Of a DNA stretch of 64,000 nt, positions 7,984 through 49,965 are shown piece by piece. Every line of letters begins with the position of its first letter. The stretch's first letter is position 1. The stretch is from Heliopora coerulea. Lineage: Eukaryota > Cnidaria > Anthozoa > Scleralcyonacea > Helioporidae. The notes under the pieces are model-generated. The model worked only from the letters and a program-made list of their open reading frames with translations, had not been told where the DNA came from and searched no databases. A program made the position numbers and the translations under genes. The stretch covers positions 124,001 through 188,000 of the forward strand of contig JASJOG010000141.1 in the NCBI GenBank assembly GCA_030142905.1, in the 5' to 3' direction.

Positions 7984-7989
7984 TTTATT
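7984..7989 (-). promoter_or_regulatory. AATAAA overlapping the stop codon of the unrecognised gene
   Basis: The last codons read CAA TAA, and the same bases with the next A's form AATAAA. If used, the 3' UTR would be only about 10-30 bases long. A longer UTR using a signal further down is also possible. Confidence 0.45.
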
Positions 7990-8485
7990 GAGTATTGCTT
8001 CTCTTTTTCCTCGGATTAGGAGACTGTTTTCTACTTCTAACTAAGAATGGCTCACTTTTAAAGTTAGCTCTGCTTCTGTCCGCAAAAGTCATCGTTACGT
8101 CGATTATGAACCGGTTTCTTCTAAATCGATCGGTAGTACTCAGTTGGTAGAACCTGGTTCCAAGCGAAGTCAAGTACACTGCATCCAAGTTTATGGAGAA
8201 GTATTGCTGAAAATAACAACAAATCAAAGTTAACAAATCAGTGATGCGTGCATATATGTAGACGTTTGAATATCAAACTATAGCAGACGTTAGCAAACTC
8301 CATTGACCTCCTGGTAGCCGATTAGGTATCTGTGCATTGAGCAAAGGCTCAGATAGTGGGTCATGCGACGTCTCAAACGTAATATACATAAAATGATGGT
8401 GTGTGTGGATACATCTGCAGTACAAGGACATTTACACACGCTTATATATCCACACATGTATTAACACACAAATATATATACACAT

Positions 8486-8531
<46 letters not shown>

Positions 8532-11500
8532 TGTATGTATGTAATGTATGTATATAGTGTATATAGGCATACATATACTTCTAAAATACATTAGTTCCTG
8601 TCATTAATTTTTAAACTTTTTTCGTCAATTAGCTTATAAATGGGTTCGTTTATGCCAGTTAAAAACTCGTAGAGCATGCTATTTATACAAAGGTGCATTT
8701 TATGTTTATATAATACACAAACACATTTGCACTATATAAATATCTACATACATTTGCTCATATATACGTATGTACTTATATACGTGCATGTGCTTATATG
8801 TGGATGTACGTGCGTGAATGCATGTATGGATGTATGCTTTTGTACGTATGTACATATGCGCACGTGTACATACCAACATATATACATAGCTACTTCTACA
8901 AGGTCGTAGGTGTGTATGTGAGTTGTGTCATCATCATGACCCAAAGGTACATTTTCCCATCGCCACAATATGGCACGTAGGTTCTCCCATCGCCAATTTA
9001 TAAGATTTGTAAAAACGCTCCGTCTTCTTGATGTCTTCAAAATACCTACCATGTTGGGCAGAGTTTTCTCCACCGTGATTGGAAATAACATCTTATCTTC
9101 TACCTCCCCAGTTTCTGGATACCGATGCACATAAACTTCGATATGAGTGTAGGTTTTGCTAAAATTAGCAAACATATGCACGCGACAATCGACGAGGCGC
9201 TGCTCTGATATACCACCACGACGGACCTGAGTTTTCTCGTAGGTCTCCTTCAAGTCAATGAAATGAATGCTAGCCGAATCAGCGAGCACTGAATATTGTC
9301 CATAAACGGTCTGCAATGCGTAATCTGGTGATTGAAGGTTTGGCGAGGATGGTGGAATAGTTATGGTTGGAGATGTTGGAGAGAGGGAAGGTGGCGGGCT
9401 ACAACGCGTGAATTTATTGTCCTGGTGCAAAGGTGGAATTTGTGACATTGGGGAGTCACATCGTGATGGGCTGCTTCCGTCACAATAGCTCAGGGGAAAT
9501 AGGGGTTGAGGAGAATCCCGAAATGGAGTAGTTTCTGTTGGACTTTGGCATTCTGCAATATCTGGAAACCAAAGAAACATGCAATACTATGTTAAAGCCT
9601 TAAAATAATGAACAGAATGTCATTGGAAAAAGTTCTTGTTCGAAAAAGATTGAAATGTCATGGACGAACGGGAGGGAGTTTAAATGATGGTCGCGTTTAA
9701 GTCTCGGAGTTGTACGTTGAGAGGAAATACTGTTGGCGATCTAATGCTAATGTTTTTGGTGATGCGTGATGAGGTCTAAATCGTTGCTATGGCCGTCATT
9801 GTGAGTTTACGGCGTACGGAATGGAACAAACCGATAGGCAGGAACGAAACGAGAGGGAAATGCATGGGTCAGTACAAAAATTTCACGAATGTTTCACATG
9901 TGAAATGAAGAATGTTGTATGGAACAACAATCTGCTTATGAAATCTAACTGTTTTAGTATATGATTTTTAGTATACATTTCTGATTTTTAGTATATATTT
10001 CTGATTTCTAGTTCAAAAATTTAATTCAAAATTGGCACGGATTAGTTGTTATTCTTTTCAACATACCAGCCCGACTGGAGTGACGTCATTTCACTTACTC
10101 TCGGAGGATACATAATGGTAAGGTCTCAGGTAATACGATTGTCGTATAGGATTGTTCGTTCTGATGTATCTATTTCATTTAGTTATTAATTATTCTATAT
10201 TATTATAATAATTTATTTATAAGTTAGTTTAGCATACACAGCTCCAATGTAAATAAGGTTACCTTTTTGGATTCTGTGTCTAATAAAGTTTATTATTATT
10301 AATATTATTTATATTTGGAGTCTTCCTGAGATATTGGTACTTCAGCGAGCAAATCGAAAACGAAACTTGTGCCTTACCTCAGGATCAACAATCGTAAGCG
10401 TCTATTGTATCGTGTAAACTATCCCCAAGATACCCAATCAAATTCATACACTGCTGACATCAAAGGGAAAATTTATACTCAATGAAATTAGCTTTCGTGA
10501 AATTTCTTTAATCAAATTATGGAGCTTTCAATTTCATTTGAGAAAACGATGTTTCATACATCATAAATTGTGATACACAAAGCTTATACTTGCCTTGGCT
10601 GATACTGCGCCCTAGCATCTTAATCTAGCGATATCTTCTATAACCCTTGTTTGACTTCCGGCTTTTTCGTACTAGTCAGTCTGAAATAGGCATTCTTAAT
10701 ACGAGGCTTCTAATACGATTCTTAATACAAGCTTTATCGCAGGTTGCTGGGTATGAATTAATAAAATAGTACTTGTAGTTGTGACAACGATATAAATACA
10801 ATGGAGTGTTTACATTATATTGGACTGGAGTGTAAAAATATAAATAGAAACTTGAACTGAATTTTGATGAAAATTCTTTTTAGCAGTTATATCTCAAAGA
10901 GAAGTACAGGAACGGAAATACAGTTACAATAAACTTGAGTAGATAAGTGTCGTAGCAGCAACACATTTACACGACACAATTACAAAATAGAAGTTTAAAC
11001 GGAAAGTCGGTGAAAGCTCAGTTACAATAAACTTGATTGGATAAAGGAGTTTCGAGACGACAAATACAATTACAAATAGGAGACTCACACGGAAAACTAT
11101 TAAACTTATAAACATGGAAAGTGGATAAAAATGCTTTTTATCAATTATACCTCAAATGACGTGCAAGACAGAGACAATTATTACAATCTTGAGTAGACGA
11201 AAAAACAACCCGATAGAAATCGCAATTACAGAGTAAAACAAATGTGAACGCAAAAAACTTTAAGCATGAAACTAACAGAACTGAACTGTAGAAAATTGAT
11301 GAAAGTTTTTGAGTCATCACAAAGAAAGGTGCGAGACTCCAGATAATACCAGATTATTTTACTGTGGCGTTTGCTCGATGATTTTACATGTAGTAGGTGA
11401 TTTCTGGACCTGCTTAGGGATAATACAGACGTTCAAGTGAAGTTTAAGTCACTAAACGCAACAAATGAGGAATTTGATCGTAGTAACGATTCATGCCGAC

Positions 11501-14500
11501 GACCTTTGTTTTATTTTGATGTTCAGTAACTGATAAGCAGAAATTCGAGGTTTCGATTCCATTCACAAGGCCAGGGTCAAGTTTTGGAAACTGTCGAATT
11601 AAACATGGAGCATGTGAAAATTATGCACTCGAGTGCATCCTGTTTTTCCCGCTTCTAATGTTTCTTTGTTATTATCTTATTGAAACTTATTTAAAAATAA
11701 TACACGTCACCTCATACTCAATGGTTTATATATAGTTTACATACAGGTGAACGAAAGCAAAACCAAAAATAGCAATCACAATATTTTTACTGCTTTCAAT
11801 AATGTTTCTTTGTTATTCTTTATTGGAACTTATTCAATGATAAACAGGATAAAACCCACTACCTAATGCGCAACGGTGTTTACATGGGAGAACACAAAAG
11901 CAATCCAAATTAATACTTATGCTGTTTATTAATACTAAATGCGAAATAAAAATTATGTGATGTACCGATTCATTTCAGAATGGACTTTAGTTTAGTACTC
12001 CATATATTCTTTCTATTTTTAATTTGGGATTATCCCTAAAGTAGTCGTGAGTGCTTAACTTTGTTAAGTGCTAAATCTCTTAAAAATTAAGTGTCTTGAA
12101 CGTTGCAGTGAAAATTCTTTGGACTGGTATCAGAGCCAGTTTCGAGTAGTCGTCAGTAATTATAGAGAGCCAACTTTATGGGAAACTTTGTTAAGTGTTA
12201 AATGTCTTATAAATCAAGTACTTGGAACGTTGCAGTGAAACTTCAACTTTATCTTCGTCTTCAAGCAAACAGGTTCGTAGAAAACCAAGTCAATTGCTTG
12301 GCAACAAACTGTTAAAACCGCATTTTGCCGCTAATGATGTGCTGTAGGAGTCTCCACTTTTGTAACACTGGTTGAACCATACACCGAGACAATTGTCACC
12401 AGTTTTATGCAAATCTCTTTGACATACTCCTATTTATTTTTATTTGTGAGTCATTCCTCTAATCTCTAGACTAGTCACATTGGTTGAACTTCCTGACCTG
12501 AAGGAGCTTCTTAGCAAAGTAAATTGCTCGGCGCAATTTACATCTCATAATCATTTGTCGTGGTATAGTATCCATTTTTGTACAACTGTTTTAACCATAC
12601 GGAGAAACAATTGTTGCGAATTCAATGCCAGGCTTGCTGGATACTTCACCCAATATTTTTTTTAATTACGAGTCACTACTCTATAATCAACACAGGCCGC
12701 ATTGATTCGACAGTGTCTGTGTCCCCGACGGTGGGAGGTGCAAACTACCTTCGTCACGACTGGGGTCATTTGTTCATGGAAAAACCGAACAACTCATCCA
12801 GGGATTAAGTTACGGCTAGCTAAAGAAAAGTATTATCCATACTTCGAAAAACCGAATTTAAATTTTATTTCCATAATAATAAACCTGAAAAAATTTCTCA
12901 ATTCTGATTGGCTGAGAGCAGTACATTTTCAAGGTAACACTGTATGGCGCGGAGAGAAGGTAATCGAGTACCGATTAAGGTAATTCATTGCATACTTTAA
13001 AGGGCACTAGGGATCCCAAATGGCTAAAAACGTCCGTCAATTACGAACTCTAAAGTTAGGGAAAATGATGGCCAGGATCGTGAGAAGAGTTTCTTTGGCA
13101 AGCCATTTCTTTTTTCGAATATTCCCACACGTCATCTCCCACTTAATTTTTCCATTAATCATGGTAATCATACCATGATTAATGATATGATTACTATGAT
13201 TAATGCCCAAATTAATCTCAAATTAATCTCGTCCAAAATTAATCTGAAATTGAACCCGAAACCGTATGATTACCAATACTAAGGGCCCATTTACACGATA
13301 CGACTGTTGTATACGATTGCTTATTTTGATGTATCCGATTCAGCCATAAGAGTCTTCGGGACCAACTGCAGCTATCGCGAGCAAATAACAAGCAGGAATT
13401 GTGCTTTTGTGACATAATCGCATACGCCAAAGTGAAGAATCGTACACGACAATCGTGGAGGGAAGCCACTAGGTAAATGAAAACTTAATTTGTTACTATA
13501 GTTCTTTAAAGCAGTGGTAGTGCTGCTCTGTTGATGAGAAATAAATAATCCGCCGAATCATCTGTCTGGAACAACGGACCTCTGTCAGTTAGGTTGTTGT
13601 GCAGCAAATATTTAAATCAACTCGCGGAGCATGATGCGGTTTAGAGTTGACTTCAACAATTACGGGTTTTTTGCTGATGCTTATCTTAAATGCTCAAGCA
13701 AAAATAGATTTTAAAGTTCAACAATATCGGAAAGATTATCTGCCCTATAATCGCTACTTGCTTTGGGGTTTGGAGCACGGAAAGTACACGATGATAAAAG
13801 GACTCGCAAGGTTCCTATAATGCTTGTGAATGGAATAAACAGACCTGACTTCTCTTTGGAAATCTCCAGTTTTATTGTTCTCAGGATAAATCGTGGTCCT
13901 TTTTGTAGTTTTTATCAGTTGACTTGAACCAGGAGTTTACGTCAGACGACGATTCATAGAGAGTATTCTGTGAAAAATTACATCAGTTCCCTAATGACGG
14001 GTGAAAATTCTCTCGCCAAATGTTGCCAAACGTGAACTCCCGTTTTACGTCAAAATAGGGACTTCAAAAATGAGGAAAACTGTCTGAGCAACGAACGTCG
14101 AGTACAGAGTGGGAAAATGCTGTCAGTCACGTCGTGTTAACTAGAATGAGGTCGTTGAGATAACTGCTGGGACTAAAAGTAATACTTGATCTCTTTTTCT
14201 CTGAAATCTAGTGCAGTTGGGAGACGTTGTATTTTCGTCAGGTCTCTATTATTTCTGTCTTGAATGTGTCACAGCAGATTTGGTGCACAGACAACAAGTC
14301 CGCACGTGTTTAAGATTTTCGTGAGCTTTGCATCAGTAATTTCACTTGAAGTGTAATAGTATTATACGTTTTATAGACATTATGTCGGCTATCTTTGTAT
14401 TTGATTTATTCTTTCCGAGCAGGATTAGGCTTCTATTATTTTACTCCAGTAAACGGCAAAAGATTTTACTACGGTAAAAGTGAGACGATTTTACTCATGA

Positions 14501-15515
14501 GGGGGAGACCATGTCAGGAACGGGTTAACTCTTTCTGGGCGTGATAAGACTTATTTTATCCTGGCCAACTTCAGACGATTTTACTATGGCTAACGCCAGA
14601 CAATTTTACTTGTCAAAGCGAGTGCTCCTGCCGCCGAAGTGTTAAACTATTGAAAAAGCGAATCGTTTCAACATCTCAGTAAACCGTGTCAAGTCAGATC
14701 ATTAGCCATGACTTTGTGTAATCTCTCGCAATCTCAACATTACGTGATCAAGCATCTCACCTGAGAAGCCGAATATTTTAGTATTACAATAAATTTTGCA
14801 ATTGTGCATAACCTTCTTCAGTTTGGTTTCCATACATAGTCATCCGATCCAGGATTTTTTTAAAATTTTGATTGGGTGAGCTAAGGCAAGCACGAAGAGG
14901 AAAGTGAGAGTTACTTTAATGACCGGGGGCAGGTATTCTTTAAATAAATTTAAGCTACCCGCTGTTTGAAGTATTGGTTTGGAAGCGTCTAGATGTAAAT
15001 AAGTGCGATAACTGTTAGTGAAACAAAGAGTAGCGGCCGTTTTAAACCGCCCGGGGTTTTAACAGCGATTATCGACCGCACACATTAGCGGTTCGAAACA
15101 AAGCAAACTCAACGGGTATGCGATCCCGAAATACTGAAATGTAGAGTATATATGAAGCTGGACACATTTTGATAACTCAAGCTTTCGGAAATTAATGAGG
15201 AAACTTTTTAAATGCACTGCGACAGTGTTGCAAATTTGTTAATAAAGAACCGGAGAAACTTCGTTACTCATCAGAGTAGTTGCACAAACTGCGTGAACTG
15301 TGTTATTCCTGGACTTTAAATTGCTCTCTTACGCATGAGGTATCACATGCATCCGAGCCAAGTGACTTACCTTTTTCGAACCAGAAAAAATCCGACAGTG
15401 GAATGTCATTTTCGTCGTCGAGAAAGACGCAGTCATCGGGTGGATCTTGATTTGTTAATTTTGCAAACGTCTCAAAGAGAAATAATTCATCTTCGGCAGT
15501 AAAGTGGTCATCCAT
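7985..15515 (-). CDS. Unrecognised regulator-like protein, three coding exons, 292 aa
   Basis: Exons: 15371-15515, 9050-9561, 7985-8206. Junctions are canonical and in phase: donor GTAAGT after phase 1, acceptor CAG at 9562, donor GTAGGT phase 0, acceptor TTTTCAG at 8207. The ATG at 15515 lies 8 bases inside an exon opened by a TTCTTCTAG acceptor, so a 5' non-coding exon is expected. Residues 1-48 are acidic and hydrophobic (EDELFLFETFAKL, IPLSDFFWF), like a transactivation domain. Residues 50-128 are Ser/Pro-rich with many SP pairs. Residues 129-279 look folded and beta-rich (DCRVHMFANFSK, HIEVYVHRYPETGEVED, RFYQLSTTDRFRRNRF, SEPFLVRSRKQ), and the protein ends in a basic NLS-like cluster (NPRKKR). 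The layout suggests a sequence-specific transcription factor. I cannot match the putative domain to p53, Rel, Runt, T-box, IRF or STAT. The function is inferred from layout only. Confidence 0.72.
8470..8910. repeat. Microsatellite cluster in intron 2 of the unrecognised gene
   Basis: A perfect (AT)n run lies at about 8488-8527. Degenerate TACATA/TGTATG-type sequence follows at 8530-8570 and 8675-8885. The long minus-strand frame crossing 8744-9049 is exon 2 read past its donor into this intron. Confidence 0.9.
10850..11330. repeat. Degenerate tandem repeat in intron 1 of the unrecognised gene
   Basis: The motif 'ttacaataaacttga' occurs near 10924 and 11021, with a decayed form near 11180. 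A second landmark, 'cttttt(a/-)...caattata(t)ctcaaa', occurs near 10878 and 11133. The copies are substantially diverged, with spacing of about 100 and 255 bases, so this is an old duplication. Confidence 0.65.
11640..12250. repeat. Old local duplications in intron 1 of the unrecognised gene
   Basis: 'aatgtttctttgttatt' occurs near 11657 and 11800, each followed by 'ttattg(a/g)aacttatt'. 'actttgttaagtg' occurs near 12058 and 12186, each followed by a similar sequence ending 'gaacgttgcagtgaaa'. Both pairs are about 130-145 bases apart, consistent with an ancient tandem array of that period. Confidence 0.7.
13154..13183. repeat. Perfect 13-bp inverted repeat
   Basis: ATTAATCATGGTA and its exact complement TACCATGATTAAT are separated by ATCA. 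A run of repeated 'aaattaatctc' units follows at 13205-13255. Confidence 0.85.
13278..13465. mobile_element. Short inverted-repeat element
   Basis: The left end reads 'cacgatacgactgttgtata' followed by 'cgatt'. The right end, reverse complemented, reads 'cacgattgtcgtgtacgatt'. The element lacks a coding frame. A related block ('tacgattgtcgtataggatt' then 'tgatgtatc') lies at 10134-10175. A 'gggcccatttacacga' start resembles other MITE ends in this window. No clear target duplication is visible. Confidence 0.55.
14420..14620. repeat. Repeat with recurrent 'gattttact' units
   Basis: Short units built on 'gac(g/a)attttact' recur at about 14463, 14497, 14575 and 14600, with 'aactctttctgggcg' between. 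Related sequence appears at 42500-42725 and 60775-60880, so this is one dispersed family with internal tandem structure. Confidence 0.6.
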
Positions 15516-15529
15516 CAGCCTAGAAGAAT

Positions 15530-18250
15530 ATGCACACAAGAACACATCACGAGCGAGGCACGTTCCTTGACTATCGAAAATAAAGATGTCATGGAGAAAA
15601 AAGTGGCTCGAATAACTTTCAATCGGTTTTTCAAACCTGTCTCTCATAAATTGCACGTCGACTTACTGGTATATATTCGTCTATCCTTGTTCACATGCAG
15701 TGTAGAGAGTCTTCCGTCAGAATAAATCCGACAGCCCCCGCTTTTCATTCATATAGATTGGAAGATGAACAAAACAACATCCTGTTTCGTATGCTCCGTG
15801 CGACTTCCTGTGCAAGAGGATTCGATCCGCTTCGACAAAACTGTCTTGCAAAAACATGCACCAACGTGAAAATGTATAATCAGCATATTTTGAATTGTGG
15901 GAACTCACGGCGGTGACTTAACTGCTCAAAAAAAAATAGAATTTTGTGCAGCGTTTGATTTCTGGATTCCGACTCATTAACTTCGTTATTGCTTACATAA
16001 ATTAGAAGCGTTGGTTCTCGTTGTGTTGGGAAACTTACTTGTCATCGAGCGAACCTGACAACCTGAATGGCAACCAAAAAACTGCTGGGACATGTCAATA
16101 AATACGATACAATACAATAAAACTAAGTCAGGAGAACATATTCTCGTATTCTGATGTTTTAAGTTCGTACTTTTTGTTTAAATGTTGTGTTTAACCTCTT
16201 GGTTGACTCTTGTTGACCAATTGCACGGCATTGACTCGAAGGTGTCAACAAGGAAGTTCGTATCCTGTGGATCCCGGTTAATAACTCAAGGACCGAGACC
16301 CTATTATTTACCTGAGATTTAACTCTGTGTATTTAACATTAAAAATTCAAAATTCGTAAGTACGGAAGTTGCAGAAGAGACTTTAAGATTTTTACTCAAT
16401 TGAAATTGTCATATTCTTCTACATACTATCGAAGCTGTGCGTTCAAGCTATAGTGTGAACCAAATGATTTAAAGTCCAGAATTTTTGGATGCCACCCGAT
16501 TTTTAACCACAAGGAGAATAGGAGAATCATTGTTTGTTTGCTAAGCCCTCGCACAACTTATAATCACATAGCAGTTGTCATTTGGTTTCTTTTGTTAACA
16601 TTGGTTTAATCTTTATGGCAAGTAGTATCTGTGGCAAGCTTTCGGTGAGTCAGCTGTATAAAAGTACTTGATCAGGAGACTGAACATGTTAAGCCAATGC
16701 AGATTCGGTGCCCGCCTTTGGAAATCTCGATTCTGTTTTAGATGGTTACAACCATGCCAGGCAACTCGACAATACGATTCTACTTGGCTAGTTTATAGAT
16801 AAACACGAGACCATAGCTTTCGAATTTGAATAAGAGTGCACTGCAAAAAGTACACCAAAAAGTTTAATATAATTATACGGGCCGGAAACAGGCATTATTG
16901 ACTTCGATATGATATAATTTATGCTTTTATTTTCAAAAAATAAAATCCTCACGGTGCATTATTGCAATGAATATTTGTTTGATTTTAGGTTTAAATATTC
17001 TGCAGTATAAACTATATATATATATATATACTTTAAGACTGGAGCATCAATCAATAATGTGCGCGTAGAAATACATAGTTAAACCGATTAACAAAAATTT
17101 TCTCATTCGGTCGGAAAAATCCGTGGGCGGAAGCTTCTACGGAAACCGAGTTTTACTAGAGGAATTGAACACTTAAAATTTTTCACAGAGAAGTCTTTAC
17201 CAACGTATTTCGCCCCCTCACTGCCCAAGTCCTCATACTTGTTGTAGCGTAGTTCAAGCTACTGACATCGATATGCATTGTTTTCATCAAAAAGGATCGA
17301 GATAGAGAGTGCTGCTTTGTGAAAAGGATCACATTGTCCGTACAATAACTGAGCGCAAAAATTACCACTCATACCCATGTTTGTTTCGAGTGAAGCACGT
17401 AATGCGAAATTTCGTGTGAAATCGATTAACAAACGTGTCGTTTACACAAGAGAAAGCAAACTATCGCTTACATAATTAAGCCATAACGATTCAGGGTGAA
17501 GTTGTTTGTGACTAAATTAAGCAGCGGTTTACTGATTCCTGGGTGAAGTTATTCACGACTAGAATCAGCCGCGTTCGATGTTAGCCGTGACTTTCCCACA
17601 GAGAAGTTGCTCGCGACTTAGGGAAACCGCGGCTTAATATTCTTGTGTAAGTGCACTGTTCGCTGCCTTCTTTGGCCCCCAGCTTATTACTTAGCGTATA
17701 AACAGCCCTGTTGTCCTCCAGAACTCTCTGTGTACAATCTAATACAATGCCAAATAACGATTACCTCCTTGTGAAAATGACCACGTCTTCGCTTTTAGAT
17801 TAGACAATTAGGTCTTTACCTAATCCTTCGTTAATAAAGTGAATCACTTGTCATTATCGATTTGTAAAATGAAAAGGAACAAAATGAAGAGAAATGAAGT
17901 TAAAAGAAGCGAAGTGAAATGGGATAGAATGAAAGTAATGCAAAAACAGAACGACACCAAATAAAAATAAGATAAAACTTAAAGGGACGCTTTATGTCGC
18001 ATGATGCGTTCTCGTATAATACAATGCCATGTAATACGATCCAATACGGTGTGGTGTTTGAGAAAATGATGTGATATGACGTGTTGAGATGCGATGACAT
18101 GTGATATGATTTCACATGATGACGTGCTATGATTTGCTATCATGTGATGTGATGTGCATGGTATGATGATTCATGTCTGAAAGTTGAGATCCATTTTGAT
18201 GGTTAAAACTCTCACTTGAATCTTACCTGTGAAGGAAAACCAGCCTGGAA
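15530..18250. other. Intergenic DNA upstream of the unrecognised gene
   Basis: This should hold the promoter and 5' non-coding exon of the gene starting at 15515, but I cannot place either. It contains a short (AT)n run at 17012-17031, a trio of hairpin-like repeats at 17486-17637, and TGATATGA-type low complexity at 18050-18175. No protein-coding exon is convincing. Confidence 0.5.
17486..17637. repeat. Three tandem hairpin-like units
   Basis: Each unit has an inverted core around a 'gtgaagtt' or 'gagaagtt' and 'cgact' turn. The clearest reads 'gattcctgggtgaagttatt' then 'cacgactagaatc'. Units lie at about 17487, 17533 and 17590, spaced about 46-57 bases. Each could fold into an imperfect stem-loop. 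Confidence 0.6.
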
Positions 18251-44000: not shown

Positions 44001-47000
44001 CAGTTACTGACTGAGTAACTTTAGTTTCTGAAATGTAATTATTACCAATAAATAAGTCCTGACATGTGAGATTCTTTTGTGCCACATTCTGTGTGTAGCT
44101 TTTGTTTGTCCTCTTTTGAAGCTATGTCTGTCCAGAAAAAACAGTTGGATAGCATTGTACTTTGTCAATATAACTTGTGAGGTAATTTTCATTAGTGATC
44201 ATTCTTTTACCTTCCAGAACCAGCCTCGTGCAGCAATACCATTCTTACAAGTTGCCCTAAAAGCAACTCAAGTTCCAATTCATCATTCCTGGCATTATCA
44301 ATTGTTGTTTCACCTTGCAGTAAGTCTGTAAGGCCTGATCAGCAAAGTTAAAAATGGTTACTAACTCACACAAATTCTTCACTGTTTAATTTGGTTTACT
44401 GGTAGTTTAAACAATACAGTATTAACATTTTATTTACCTTATTGTTACTCAAGAAGTGCTGCCACAAAAATGCTTGAGGAAGGACTTACCCTGTTCTTTG
44501 GGCTCACATCTTTTCTCTATTTCATGGTTACCTCTTACTTACTATAATTTCAAACCCTTTTTAATGTTGTCTACCCAGTATAAATTATTCTGCTATACAG
44601 GTACAGCATGAAAATGTACAACCAAGTTATCAAAAGACTATTCAGACATTTGAGTTCAATTCTTGCTGTATTTTACTGATGTTGTGCTATAGGAACTTCA
44701 TGCTTCTGCAAATGAGATGCCAAATGCCATTGAAGTACTTCTAGCTGGAGAACAATTTGCTCAGCAAAATGGCTCAGAATACATGAGGTAATCTTTATCA
44801 TTTTTTACATCCAACAGTGTACTGCATCTCTGTTCACTTTCTGTCCCATTTAGTTCATAAATCCATCCCATCCCATTGTCACCCTCCATTCCATCATCTA
44901 TCATTGGCCCATCTCTAAGCTTGTGTATCCACCAATTCATCTATCCATCCATCCATTTGTACATCTCATTTTTTGACAGGGCACTACCTTTGAACTTTTT
45001 CTATGTTGATTCAGAACTGCCTGCACAGCATTCCATTATATTTTTTAATTTAATTTTTAATTTAACAAATTTCCAATTATTAATTATATTAAAATAATCT
45101 ATACACAATAGAAAAATAAAAATAAAAACACATTGTGGCCACTGGCAACAGGGCAAGGCCTCAATCTAAGGCCAGTGACCAGTTATTTAAAAAAGAAAAA
45201 GATAAAATAAACAAATAAAGAACAAATTAAAAACAATGCAATAATTAGCCACAACAAAAATTCAATTTCAATTGACTTGTAGCATTCCCACACATATAGC
45301 ATGTCAACTTCCAAGTTTGCTGATGAGTGGTGTCAAATGTATTCTCCATATGTTCTTTACAATGACATTTATTCATCCATTCAGCAACTTATAATGGACC
45401 ATCTGCTTGTCTGTATTTAACATGTACATGTATACGGTGTTCAGTTTCACAATCAAGGCTTCAGATATTGCCAGATCAAACCAGGGAATAAAGACTTTTC
45501 CACTTATTCACTTTTTATTATTGCTATTATCTTCTTTTTTTCAGGTGTTTGTTTATTTTGAGCAGAGTTCTGGTAATTATGAATGTTAATATGTATAGTT
45601 TGTTATTAAATAATTGTTCAAAACTAAAAGTGTGATCACAATTTTTGCATTGCATAATTATCAATGATGCACCACAAGTACAAAGCCCATGTCTTAGCTG
45701 AAACTTCATGACAACAATCATGCATTGTATTAAGTGAGAGATTTCCTGGGATGGTAGGGGTGAAAGGTACTGGTACTAGATTTTAGAAATCTTTAGCTGC
45801 TATCTCCTATCTGCTGATAATCCCAAGCACAGCTGCTTGTCAAATAGGGATGTTACCAGCTCCCTCAGTTTCGTGAGTTTCTTTATAATCTCATTAGGTG
45901 AACCAATTTAAGGTTGATTTAATTACAGGTGTAGAAGGAATTGCTATCTGTCCTTAAATGTTGTCAAGGTGATAAAAGGTCTGAATTTCTGAATATTCAG
46001 GCTACTGAATAACTTGTTTTAGGCTAAAATAGGCCATTTCTGAACTACATTTTCAGCCATCTCTGAAACAGGCTTGTGCTAAATGTTTCACATGAAAGTT
46101 AGGTTTTACATCAAAGGTTGTGAGGCTCATTTCAGGATAGACAAAGAGGGGTGATTCAGAAATGGCTCATTGATCTCTTCAATGAAAGCTCTTAAAGAAC
46201 GTGTTTTGAAAAGTAATTTTTAAACTCTTGAAATGTTTTCTAATTTTCTTTTTTTCTTGTATGAAATGCAGTATTTGCTAGTGATACATGATTACAACCA
46301 GGCTTCTCTGATACTAACAAGTTTTGGTCCATATTTGGAGATGTGGCGAGGTCCACAATTTCAAGGAGAACATATCAGAATATTTTACCTGGCTCTGCAA
46401 GTCTGGCTTGGTATTGCTTCAGGACAGGTGTGGTAAATTGTGGTAAAGGGTTTTGTAGAAGTCAGTTGTGAAAGCAAAGGGATGTGAAGGGCTAAAAGGA
46501 AATGAAGGGAAAGGATAGAAGGAAAGGGAATGGAAAGAGTGAGAAGGTAAGGTAAGAAAAGTGAATAGAGAGAGGTAGTAACTGGAAGGAATGAGAAGGG
46601 AATGGGAAGGGAAGGAAGGGAAGAGAAAGGAAGGAATAGAAACATGATAGAAAGCAATGTCAGTGAAGTGACAATGCATTGGAGTGCAGTATTGATTGAC
46701 TGGTGAAGCAGTAAAGTTAACTGGTTAAGTGATATGAAGTGAAAGTAAGGTGAAATTAAAATAACCAAAGTGCAATGCAGAAGAAAAATGAAATGGAGTG
46801 TATTGAAGTTTAAGGTAGGAGAGTGAAGTGATGCAGTTTGATGTGTGATGAAGTTACAATAATTTTGACTTGAAGTGAAAGAGAAATGAAGTGGAGGAGA
46901 GTGGAGTGAAGTGAAAGAAGTAAAGTAAAGTGAAATGAAAAGGAAGTAAAGTGAAGTGAAATGGAGTGGAGTGAAGTGAAGTGAATTGAAGTGAAAGAGA

Positions 47001-49965
47001 AGTGAAGTAAAGTGAAGTGAAGTGAAGTAAAAACTAAGTAAAGTAAAGTGAAGTGAAAGGGAAGTGAAGTGGGGTAAAGTGAAGTGAAATGGAGTGGAGT
47101 GAAGTGAAGTGAAAGAGAAGTGAAGTGAATTGAAGTTAAGTGAAGTGGACTGAAGTGAAGTGAAGCAAAGGGAAGAAAAATGAAGTCCAAGACATGTCAT
47201 ATGAATTGGAGTGAAGTGAAGTAAAGTGTAAGAGGTATGATATGTAGAGGAGTGAAGTGAGATGAGGTAAAATGGAGTGAAGTGAAGTGAAGTCAAGTAG
47301 AGTCAAGTGAAGCAACGTGAATTAGTAGATATAGTAGCAAAGTGCAGTGAGCTAGTTAATCACAGTAAGGTGGATTAGAGAAGTGTTGCCCAGTGCCTTA
47401 CCATAAGTTTTTTTTGTAGATAAAAAGCACTCATATCGTTACCGCATCTCTCTCTTATATTTGACTTGCTCTTTCAGCCTAAGACTGTAAGACCGTTCAT
47501 TAAAGAACTTCAACACTGTATTCAAGTTATCACGTCACATGATCCAAGAGCTGGTAAGAATCACTAGAGAATAACCCACAATTCCTTAATACAAGTCTTC
47601 TGCCACGTGCAAGTATTTAGGATTTCAAAAATGGTCTGCAAGATACTTCTTAACTCCTTGAATTATCAGGGATGAAAGTCTTCTTCGTTGCTGCTTGAGT
47701 AAACAAAAAGTTGACCTTAATCAGGACAATTTTGTTAGTACATAACATAATACTCACACAGTCGTTTCTTCATAGTTTTCTGCGCATATCAATAAATGAA
47801 TATTCTCTTTGGCTTTACTGCACGATCTCGTCGATTTCTGAGGTCAGTGTGAATCTCGGGAGAACAATATTTTACGCCCACATAAAGATGACTGACACTT
47901 AAATCAACACGTCTAACAATTAGATCGACTCTGGAGTAAAATAAATTCCTATGTACTCGGAGTTATGGAATGCCTGACCCCTTACAAATCGCTCCAACTT
48001 TTTTTCGCATTGTAAACTGTGTCACTTACCCCAAACTGGAGGCTTAGACTGTACCATGCCCTGAGAGGTGTTCACTTACGTCTGCATCGATTGTTTTATC
48101 ATTGCAGAAGCAAATGTACCAGAACATGAAAAATTTCAGTGGTTAACGAGGGAACATCTTTGCATTATTGTATATCTGGTAAGTGTTAAGTTGATGGAAA
48201 AAACGAAGCTCAAGTCACGCAGATGATCGTGAGTCGGGCATCGTGTAGTGTTCTTGAACACAGTCGTAATGAATAACGCGCAAAATGCTGAAATTGGTGG
48301 AGAATTTTTCCCAATAACCGGAAATCATTAATGAGTAACCTATCATTTCTCTTGTACCCTTTCCTCAATCTCAACGACCAGATGTATGTGACAAAGGGAG
48401 CCAATTTCGCCAACAAGGCAACATATCACTATTTTGATGTCTGCAGGTATCGGACGACCACATTCAATGTTTCTCTTTCTATGTTTGTTTCCATACCTCA
48501 GAATTTTCTCAACTCCAGTCACGGCCACCGTTACTGTTTCTTGCTTAATCCAGATTAGGAAACCTACGTTTTCTGTAGAAATCTTATTTCCAGATCCTGA
48601 TTCTGTTGATATTTTGGCAGAGTAAGTTACAAATTTGGAAAAGTACATTGCAAATTTCCTATAAAAGTTCAAGTACAGTTTACTAAACATACCGCCTAGA
48701 TAGTGAAAATTTCAACCAAATTAGCAAGGCGAAGTAGGGACAGTTGACGTAGTTCTCCGATTATATAATTATTCGATGGGGTTATTACCTGTAGTTGATT
48801 GATTTCCAATTGTCTTCTTGAATATTTAGCTTACTGTAATTCACTGCGTGCAAGGTGGACACATGGAGAAATCCTTGAAGTACAGTCAAAAGGCACTATC
48901 GCAAATAGCAAGTTTGCAAGGTACGGCTTTTTTGTTTTACTGTTTTAAGATTTTCTTAAATAGCTAATAACTCAATCAATATTCTATGTTCTTTGCTCGG
49001 TATTCTTCATTCTGTACTCTGAAGTCAATATTCTTTTCTTTATATTCTATATTCTATGTTCTATATCCTATATTCTATATCCTATGGTCTATATTCCATG
49101 TTGTATATCCTATATTCTGTATCCTGTGTATTCTATATTCTGTATTCTATATTCTGTATTCTGTATTCTGTATTCTATATACTGTACTTCATAATGTACA
49201 TTGTATATCGTATAATCTGTATTTCATGTGTGTGTATGTATACATGCATGTACTTGTATGCGTGTTTGTATTTATTTAAGTATGTATGTACGTATATGCA
49301 TGTAAACTCATCTGTATTCCGTTTTTACCTTATTCTAATATCTTTCTAGAAACGCAGTCAAGTCACTTGCTTTCGTTATTTGAGCTCGTCTTATTGGAAA
49401 ACGTGATTGTGTGTCACGTTATCCTGGGTCAATCTAACAAAGCCGTTAAAGAGGTAACTGAATCTGTAGATTACTTTAACTCGTTTAGCGCAACTGCTCT
49501 TGTTAGATGGCTTTTATTTGAATAATAAAAAATTAACTTCCCACCTTCAGGGCTCGCAACTAACTTTTCGGACTACTAGCGCAATGGCTAGTGACAGGTT
49601 TGATTTCACCAGCCAAAATAAATTTTCACTCGCTACACTTGTACTGGTGGCCTCAATAAAATAGCAAGTGCATGAGAATAAAACATTCTCAGATGCAGTT
49701 TGATCAGTTTTTCAGGTCCTCAACAAATTCCATTGCTTTTCAGTTAGCTCTAATTATTAATTTATTACAGGATATCAGTATACTGAGTCTGCGTTGTAGT
49801 TGGGTTCTCTCAATTTAGTTTTGCGATTCATCGATCAGAAAATATTAAATTTTCATTTGGTTTTCTTCTGGTACGCGAGAGGAGCAATACGCCACAATTC
49901 CCACTTGCCAAAATGGCTAGTTAAAGCCAAAATCTGCTGGCCAAAAATGAAGTTTTACTGGACTT

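What the first reader, a model, noticed from the sequence alone, without database searches (positions are those of the whole stretch)
7985..15515. Unrecognised transcription-factor-like gene with an unfamiliar binding domain
Three exons join in phase with canonical splice sites to give 292 residues: an acidic, aromatic-rich N terminus, a Ser/Pro-rich linker and a beta-rich C-terminal part ending in a basic cluster. The C-terminal motifs (RFYQLSTTDRFRRNRF, SEPFLVRSRKQ, HRYPETGEVED) do not match any DNA-binding family I can recall. It may be a lineage-restricted regulator or a very diverged member of an Ig-fold family such as Rel, Runt or p53-like proteins.
Basis: partly seen in the sequence, partly recalled or inferred. 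Interest (0 to 1): 0.8.

Follow-up and report, generated by a model that had tools for sequence, protein, structure and literature searches.

The report
Coral-wide orphan regulator-like gene family
This is a real three-exon coral gene from an unannotated protein family shared by sea anemones, stony corals and soft corals, and its end domain looks like a stripped-down relative of the DNA-binding part of the Notch-pathway factor CSL, so corals may own a class of gene regulators that has gone unnoticed.

Summary
The gene is real. Exons 15515-15371, 9561-9050 and 8206-7985 (minus strand, GT-AG) join into 292 codons plus stop. Four full-length homologues carry both junctions; one comes from a 1165-nt contig, too short for these introns. 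A search with its domain and four paralogues found 69 proteins; the 14 rows naming an organism are all anthozoans, named only as hypothetical or uncharacterised. The genome holds at least seven copies, five within 140 kb.

The C-terminal domain of a homologue is predicted as an Ig-like beta-sandwich (pLDDT 84.5). Profiles of the third-exon half matched only CSL (RBPJ/Su(H)) in the PDB at E<=10, weakly (E 0.05-0.53), over late strands and basic tail of CSL's DNA-binding Rel-like domain. The second-exon half shows no such signal, and the whole-length profile found nothing.

Best reading: a nuclear regulator with an acidic N terminus and a stand-alone CSL/Rel-like Ig-fold DNA-binding domain, without CSL's other two domains. 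Fold is predicted; DNA binding and CSL kinship are inferred, not shown.

The parts
15371..15515 (-). Exon 1 (coding part): start codon, residues 1-48 plus first base of codon 49; acidic/aromatic region resembling an activation domain
   Evidence: Junction GAAAAAG|GTAAGT; 15 D/E, 2 K/R, 14 F/W/Y/L of 48; DELFLFETFxKL-like block shared by P0001, P0002, P0003, P0005
9562..15370 (-). Intron 1, 5,809 bp, phase 1, GT-AG
   Evidence: junction matched by full-length homologues
9050..9561 (-). Exon 2: Ser/Pro-rich linker and first half of the beta-sandwich domain (to residue 219)
   Evidence: homologues
9050..9283 (-). Domain, first half (residues 142-219)
   Evidence: AF2 model of homologue P0025 and alignments A7/A10
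9197..9241 (-). YEKTQVRRGGISEQR (residues 156-170): conserved basic hairpin between the first strands, proposed DNA-recognition element
   Evidence: K23, Q25, R27, S32, Q34, R35 (P0025 numbering) invariant in the 38 rows of A7; in the 20-row A10 with diverged paralogues C, D, G only K and one Q of them stay invariant; net charge of family columns 16-39 about +3.7
8207..9049 (-). Intron 2, 843 bp, phase 0, GT-AG; in paralogues B, C, D, E and G the domain is split into two open frames at about the same place (their splice sites were not examined), in F it is not
7985..8206 (-). Exon 3: second half of the domain, basic tail and stop (residues 220-292)
   Evidence: paralogues; homologues
8012..8146 (-). 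Residues 240-284 (QLSTTDRFRRNRF...FKSEPFLVRSRKQSPNP), the segment that aligns to CSL RHR-N (RBPJ TLYISDSDKRKHF...ISKPSKKKQ)
   Evidence: hhalign P 5.2e-4, 0 of 200 shuffles as high; PDB profile search hits only CSL at E<=10
7988..8044 (-). Basic C-terminal tail LVRSRKQSPNPRKKRSNTQ (residues 274-292), NLS-like and proposed DNA-backbone contact
   Evidence: 7 K/R, 0 D/E of 19; aligned with CSL ISKPSKKKQ, which holds K169

Best explanation
The gene encodes a small nuclear regulator of an anthozoan family not described in the sources searched. The N terminus (residues 1-48) is an acidic, aromatic activation-type region, followed by a Ser/Pro linker. Residues about 142-279 form an Ig-like beta-sandwich related to, or built like, the Rel-homology N-terminal domain (RHR-N) of CSL (RBPJ/Su(H)/LAG-1). 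I propose that it grips DNA with the hairpin between the first strands (YEKxQxR....SxQR, where CSL has AQKSYGNEKRF), the loop before the RRNRF strand, and the basic tail after the last strand (RSRK..., where CSL has ISKPSKKK). It lacks CSL's beta-trefoil and C-terminal Rel-like domains, so it should bind weakly alone and need a partner or a dimer, and it should not be the Notch effector. Shown: gene, splice model, family, conservation. Predicted: fold. Inferred: nuclear location, DNA binding, activation, CSL kinship.
For: Gene and splice model. Family of 69 hits whose named members span hexacorals and octocorals. AF2 domain model pLDDT 84.5, pTM 0.78, beta-sandwich. 12 of the 21 invariant columns of A7 are polar or charged, and the largest charge sums lie in the hairpin segment (+3.7) and the tail (+3.6). 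The profile of 27 exon-3 halves hits only CSL among 177,635 PDB sequences at E<=10 (8 of 8 rows; Su(H) E 0.052), and still does after removing the three rows that had prompted the idea (8 of 8; Su(H) 0.12, RBPJ 0.5). Four closely related members have LAG1-DNAbind as their only Pfam match, in the same register, E 0.012-0.18. hhalign to RBPJ NTD: 0 of 200 shuffles as high for A7, A8 and A9; p65 and RUNX1 gave no match. In CSL the aligned tail holds K169 and the first loop holds E63, R65 and F66, all with a reported role in DNA binding (PMC9398005, passages; positions). No membrane-like stretch (highest 19-residue mean hydropathy 1.25) in 24 of 24 proteins; first 60 residues have pI under 5 in 19 of 24.
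Confidence: 0.55

Rival explanations
1. An Ig-fold transcription factor of independent or unresolved origin: it binds DNA through the same loops, but the CSL resemblance is convergence or chance.
For: Acidic N terminus and basic tail, beta-sandwich fold, conserved basic hairpin and tail; CSL signal weak and confined to one half.
Against: The only matches of the exon-3 profiles in the PDB are to an Ig-fold DNA-binding domain at the topologically fitting place, a coincidence if unrelated.
Confidence: 0.23
2. An intracellular Ig-like protein-binding adaptor (SKICH-like or similar), with the conserved surface serving protein or peptide binding and no DNA contact.
Confidence: 0.17
3. Chance joining of unrelated exons or a decayed gene.
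For: None in the window copy; paralogue D on the same contig carries a TAG in one match and a degenerate second exon-3 copy.
Against: Full-length homologues with both junctions and a compact 1165-nt source contig; open frame through all three exons.
Confidence: 0.02

Closest known systems
CSL (RBPJ / Su(H) / LAG-1) RHR-N domain, Pfam PF09271 LAG1-DNAbind
   Same: Ig-like fold class; weak sequence match, the only one of the exon-3 profiles in the PDB, over the late strands and basic tail in one register; basic first-strand loop and tail in the places where CSL touches DNA (the placing of the first loop is by eye)
   Different: No beta-trefoil and no RHR-C; the full-length members read are 213-327 aa and end with or soon after the domain; acidic N-terminal region in most; exon-2 half has no detectable similarity; below the Pfam cut-off
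NF-kB/Rel, Runt, p53 (other Ig-fold DNA-binding families)
   Same: General plan: beta-sandwich with conserved basic loops; acidic/aromatic N terminus as in p53 (recalled); a 15-column hhalign match to p53, P 0.054
   Different: No Pfam hit in this class; no hhalign signal for p65 or RUNX1
SKICH domain (TAX1BP1)
   Different: 14% identity, tied with unrelated Ig folds, no sequence match listed

Membership tests
CSL (RBPJ/Su(H)/LAG-1) | RHR-N domain (PF09271) above cut-off | tested here: inconclusive
   Best 17.2 bits against cut-off 25, 44 residues, only in the P0077-type members, not in 37 others; exon-3 profiles find only CSL in the PDB but at E 0.05-0.53, the whole-length profile finds nothing
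CSL (RBPJ/Su(H)/LAG-1) | Beta-trefoil domain (PF09270) after RHR-N | tested here: not met
   The frame stops at the basic tail in the window gene and at or soon after it in the full-length homologues read; PF09270 was not listed for any member scanned. One ricin-type trefoil hit at E 0.15 among 27 exon-3 pieces is taken as noise
CSL (RBPJ/Su(H)/LAG-1) | RHR-C / IPT domain | tested here: not met
   As above: nothing of that size follows the domain; no such family listed
CSL (RBPJ/Su(H)/LAG-1) | Binding to the GTG(G/A)GAA site | not testable with these tools
   Needs protein; site as given in the abstract of PMC1973085 (listing)
Ig-fold (beta-sandwich) DNA-binding superclass | Ig-like beta-sandwich domain | tested here: met
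   AF2 model pLDDT 84.5, pTM 0.78, all-beta with three short helices; listed matches are mostly Ig-like sandwiches. A prediction for homologue P0025, not for the window protein itself
Ig-fold (beta-sandwich) DNA-binding superclass | DNA contact through loops and tail | not testable with these tools
   Conserved basic hairpin and tail are consistent; no coordinates or binding data were available
NF-kB/Rel, Runt, p53 | Family-level sequence match | tested here: inconclusive
   None of these families among the 13 listed for 37 members at E<=10; hhalign of A9 with single recalled sequences: p65 P 0.42, RUNX1 0.17, p53 0.054 with 0 of 60 shuffles as high; low power

The most novel reading that the evidence does not exclude
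Anthozoans possess a family-level innovation: stand-alone Rel/CSL-type DNA-binding domains cut loose from the beta-trefoil and Notch machinery, coupled to acidic activation regions and expanded in a local cluster. The window gene belongs to an octocoral branch of it that could compete or cooperate with CSL at its half-sites.
Probability: 0.37. Interest if true: 0.8.

Novelty: new variant of a known kind. Interest (0 to 1): 0.6.

Why it matters
Catalogues of animal transcription factors rest on known domain models, and this family stays below the Pfam models tried, though it has members in hexacorals and octocorals and at least seven copies in this genome. If it binds DNA it adds a regulator class to corals and anemones, and if it derives from CSL it shows that the DNA-gripping part of the Notch effector can live apart from Notch. 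Both claims are directly testable in Nematostella, which has a member (P0039, LOC116616144).

Tried and rejected
Pfam: no hit to the window pieces; NDT80_PhoG (E 1.1) lies in the N-terminal region of P0002, not in the domain, and was dropped; AIRC, HCV_env, Forkhead, DNA gyrase B and others at E 0.041-1.9, one or two members each, were taken as noise. PDB by sequence: tail tubular protein at E 0.65 for the window domain and dynein light chain at E 1.4 for A1 were taken as noise; the whole-length profile A6, the family consensus and copy F found nothing at E<=10. The first AF2 model (P0001, 6 rows) was poor, pLDDT 54, and gave only generic matches. VIA-align names no DNA-binding family among the 50 entries shown for the better model, which is no evidence against one. 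Exon-2 profile against RBPJ and against the PDB: no CSL signal. hhalign p53 control: 15 columns, 15.6 against a shuffle maximum of 15.3, not followed up. Literature: no paper of the library holds any of six locus names of members. Searches on the subject listed only their best rows (15 of 30 papers; 52: 3 of 2,709; 60: 10 of 109; 64: 10 of 70; 71: 1 of 1; 72: 8 of 107; 116: 10 of 22; 120: 10 of 145), and no title or abstract start listed describes such a family; I read passages only of PMC10340346, PMC9398005, PMC1973085 and PMC2770060. One search was a translation at a wrong offset and was discarded.
Full report
WHAT IS THERE. The window lies in a 430-Mb genome of 769 contigs. Of the four full-length matches, two are named and are octocorals (Paramuricea clavata P0002, Xenia P0005; class recalled) and two are unnamed (P0001, P0003). 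They align end to end with both exon junctions kept. P0001 (297 aa) comes from a 1165-nt contig, too short to contain such introns, so it is probably a spliced transcript. Transcription in the window's own species was not tested.

FAMILY. A search from the window protein's domain reached 9 proteins at E<=10, and one from a five-sequence alignment reached 14. Searching with an alignment of five genomic copies from this genome (four paralogues plus the window gene's own domain) reached 69 proteins at E<=10, the weakest at 2.2e-11. Fourteen of the 69 rows name an organism: Paramuricea, Dendronephthya, Xenia, Stylophora, Orbicella, Oculina, Desmophyllum, Porites, Nematostella, Actinostola, Actinia, Acropora and Pocillopora (two rows); that all are anthozoans is recalled, not looked up. 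The other 55 rows name none. The search finds only relatives that share short exact words, so absence elsewhere is not proven. Names given are 'hypothetical', 'unnamed' or 'uncharacterized'. On a tree of 43 domain sequences the window gene sits with P0001, P0002, P0003 and P0005 (99/100) on a long stem of 1.1 changes per column, apart from an E-type clade with the other octocoral rows (91/88), a B-type clade (99/94) and hexacoral clades. The tool warns that the bootstrap had not settled and that this long branch and own_D may attract each other.

PARALOGUES. The genome holds at least seven copies: C (contig C48, 5.0-6.1 kb), G (17.0-18.5 kb), D (46.3-47.8 kb), B (87.7-90.2 kb) and the window gene (132.0-139.5 kb) on C48, E on C113 and F on C751. 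In B, C, D, E and G the domain lies in two open frames broken at about the place of the window gene's second intron; F reads the corresponding part in one frame. Splice sites of the paralogues were not examined. The exact count is open because the genome search stopped answering.

LINK TO CSL. One member (P0081) matched Pfam LAG1-DNAbind, the RHR-N domain of CSL, at E 0.12, 0.015 when trimmed to its exon-3 part; three close relatives did so in the same register (P0077 0.012, P0079 0.13, P0080 0.18). The other five members (only P0074 and P0076 hold exon 3), the ten, the 37 and 24 of the 27 exon-3 halves did not. I then searched all PDB sequences with the profile of those 27 halves (A8): at E<=10 there were 8 rows, all CSL (Su(H) E 0.052, RBPJ 0.18-0.2). 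Because three of those halves had been picked after the Pfam hit, I removed them (A9): again 8 rows, all CSL (Su(H) 0.12, RBPJ 0.5-0.53). The 8 rows are two proteins in several constructs, so this is one finding, not eight. The whole-length profile A6 had found no PDB sequence at E<=10. hhalign against the RBPJ N-terminal domain put A7, A8 and A9 in one register with P 0.0097, 0.00026 and 0.00052, and 0 of 200 shuffles reached each score, with a narrow margin for A7 (22.4 against 21.0). As controls with 60 shuffles each, p65 and RUNX1 gave nothing; p53 gave with A9 a 15-column match, P 0.054, just above all 60 shuffles (15.6 against 15.3), and with A7 2 of 60 shuffles were as high. The stretch aligned to RBPJ is strand F, strand G and the basic tail. 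In RBPJ the tail holds K169, and the first loop (AQKSYGNEKRF) holds E63, R65 and F66; the paper reports that E63 and K169 variants weaken DNA binding and gives R65 and F66 a role in it (PMC9398005, passages; positions checked). The family's hairpin stands in the same place of the chain, but its alignment to the CSL loop is by eye only: the exon-2 half alone gives no CSL signal (43 of 200 shuffles as high; its PDB search finds ribosomal S20 at E 0.43). That last result also shows how strong a chance match can be here. What lifts the CSL match above such noise is that it falls on an Ig-fold DNA-binding domain, at the fitting strands; it is probable rather than proven.

HOW IT LIKELY WORKS. In the window protein an acidic N terminus (first 60 residues pI 4.1), basic last 150 residues (pI 9.8), no membrane-like stretch and a single cysteine in the last 150 residues point to a soluble nuclear protein. 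I infer a transcription regulator that binds DNA through the hairpin, the F-strand loop and the tail, with residues 1-48 recruiting co-activators and the SP-rich linker open to proline-directed kinases. Lacking the beta-trefoil and RHR-C it should not bind as CSL does and would need a dimer or a partner. Against this, four E-type paralogues have neutral-to-acidic last 150 residues, and 5 of 24 N termini have pI above 5, the Nematostella one at 9.0, so the plan may not hold for every branch.

VERDICT. I rate it a new variant of a known kind.

Noticed in passing
G000:C48:46348-46784 (locus L022): Paralogue D has a second, degenerate exon-3 copy just downstream of the first, and one match there carries a TAG, suggesting partial duplication and decay.
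   Followed up: partly
G000:C751:1024701-1025096 (L012:1390-1785): Copy F reads the stretch across the family's conserved break in one open frame and is very diverged; it may be intron-less there, a retrocopy or an older type. P0060 looks similar.
   Followed up: partly
Linkers of members P0007, P0009 (IKLEP), P0008 and P0003 (FKPEP): Motifs like the SUMO-linked synergy-control motif of transcription factors (recalled) occur in some homologues but not in the window protein.
   Followed up: no
window 46385-47302 and 44001-48000: A 305-residue open frame of Ser/Leu/Phe/Thr/His-rich near-repeat sequence in a 4-kb stretch with raised GC skew, 0.137; looks like low-complexity repeat, not a gene.
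   Followed up: no
window 15516-15530: A splice-acceptor-like TTCTTCTAG lies just upstream of the start codon on the minus strand, so a non-coding 5' exon is possible.
   Followed up: no
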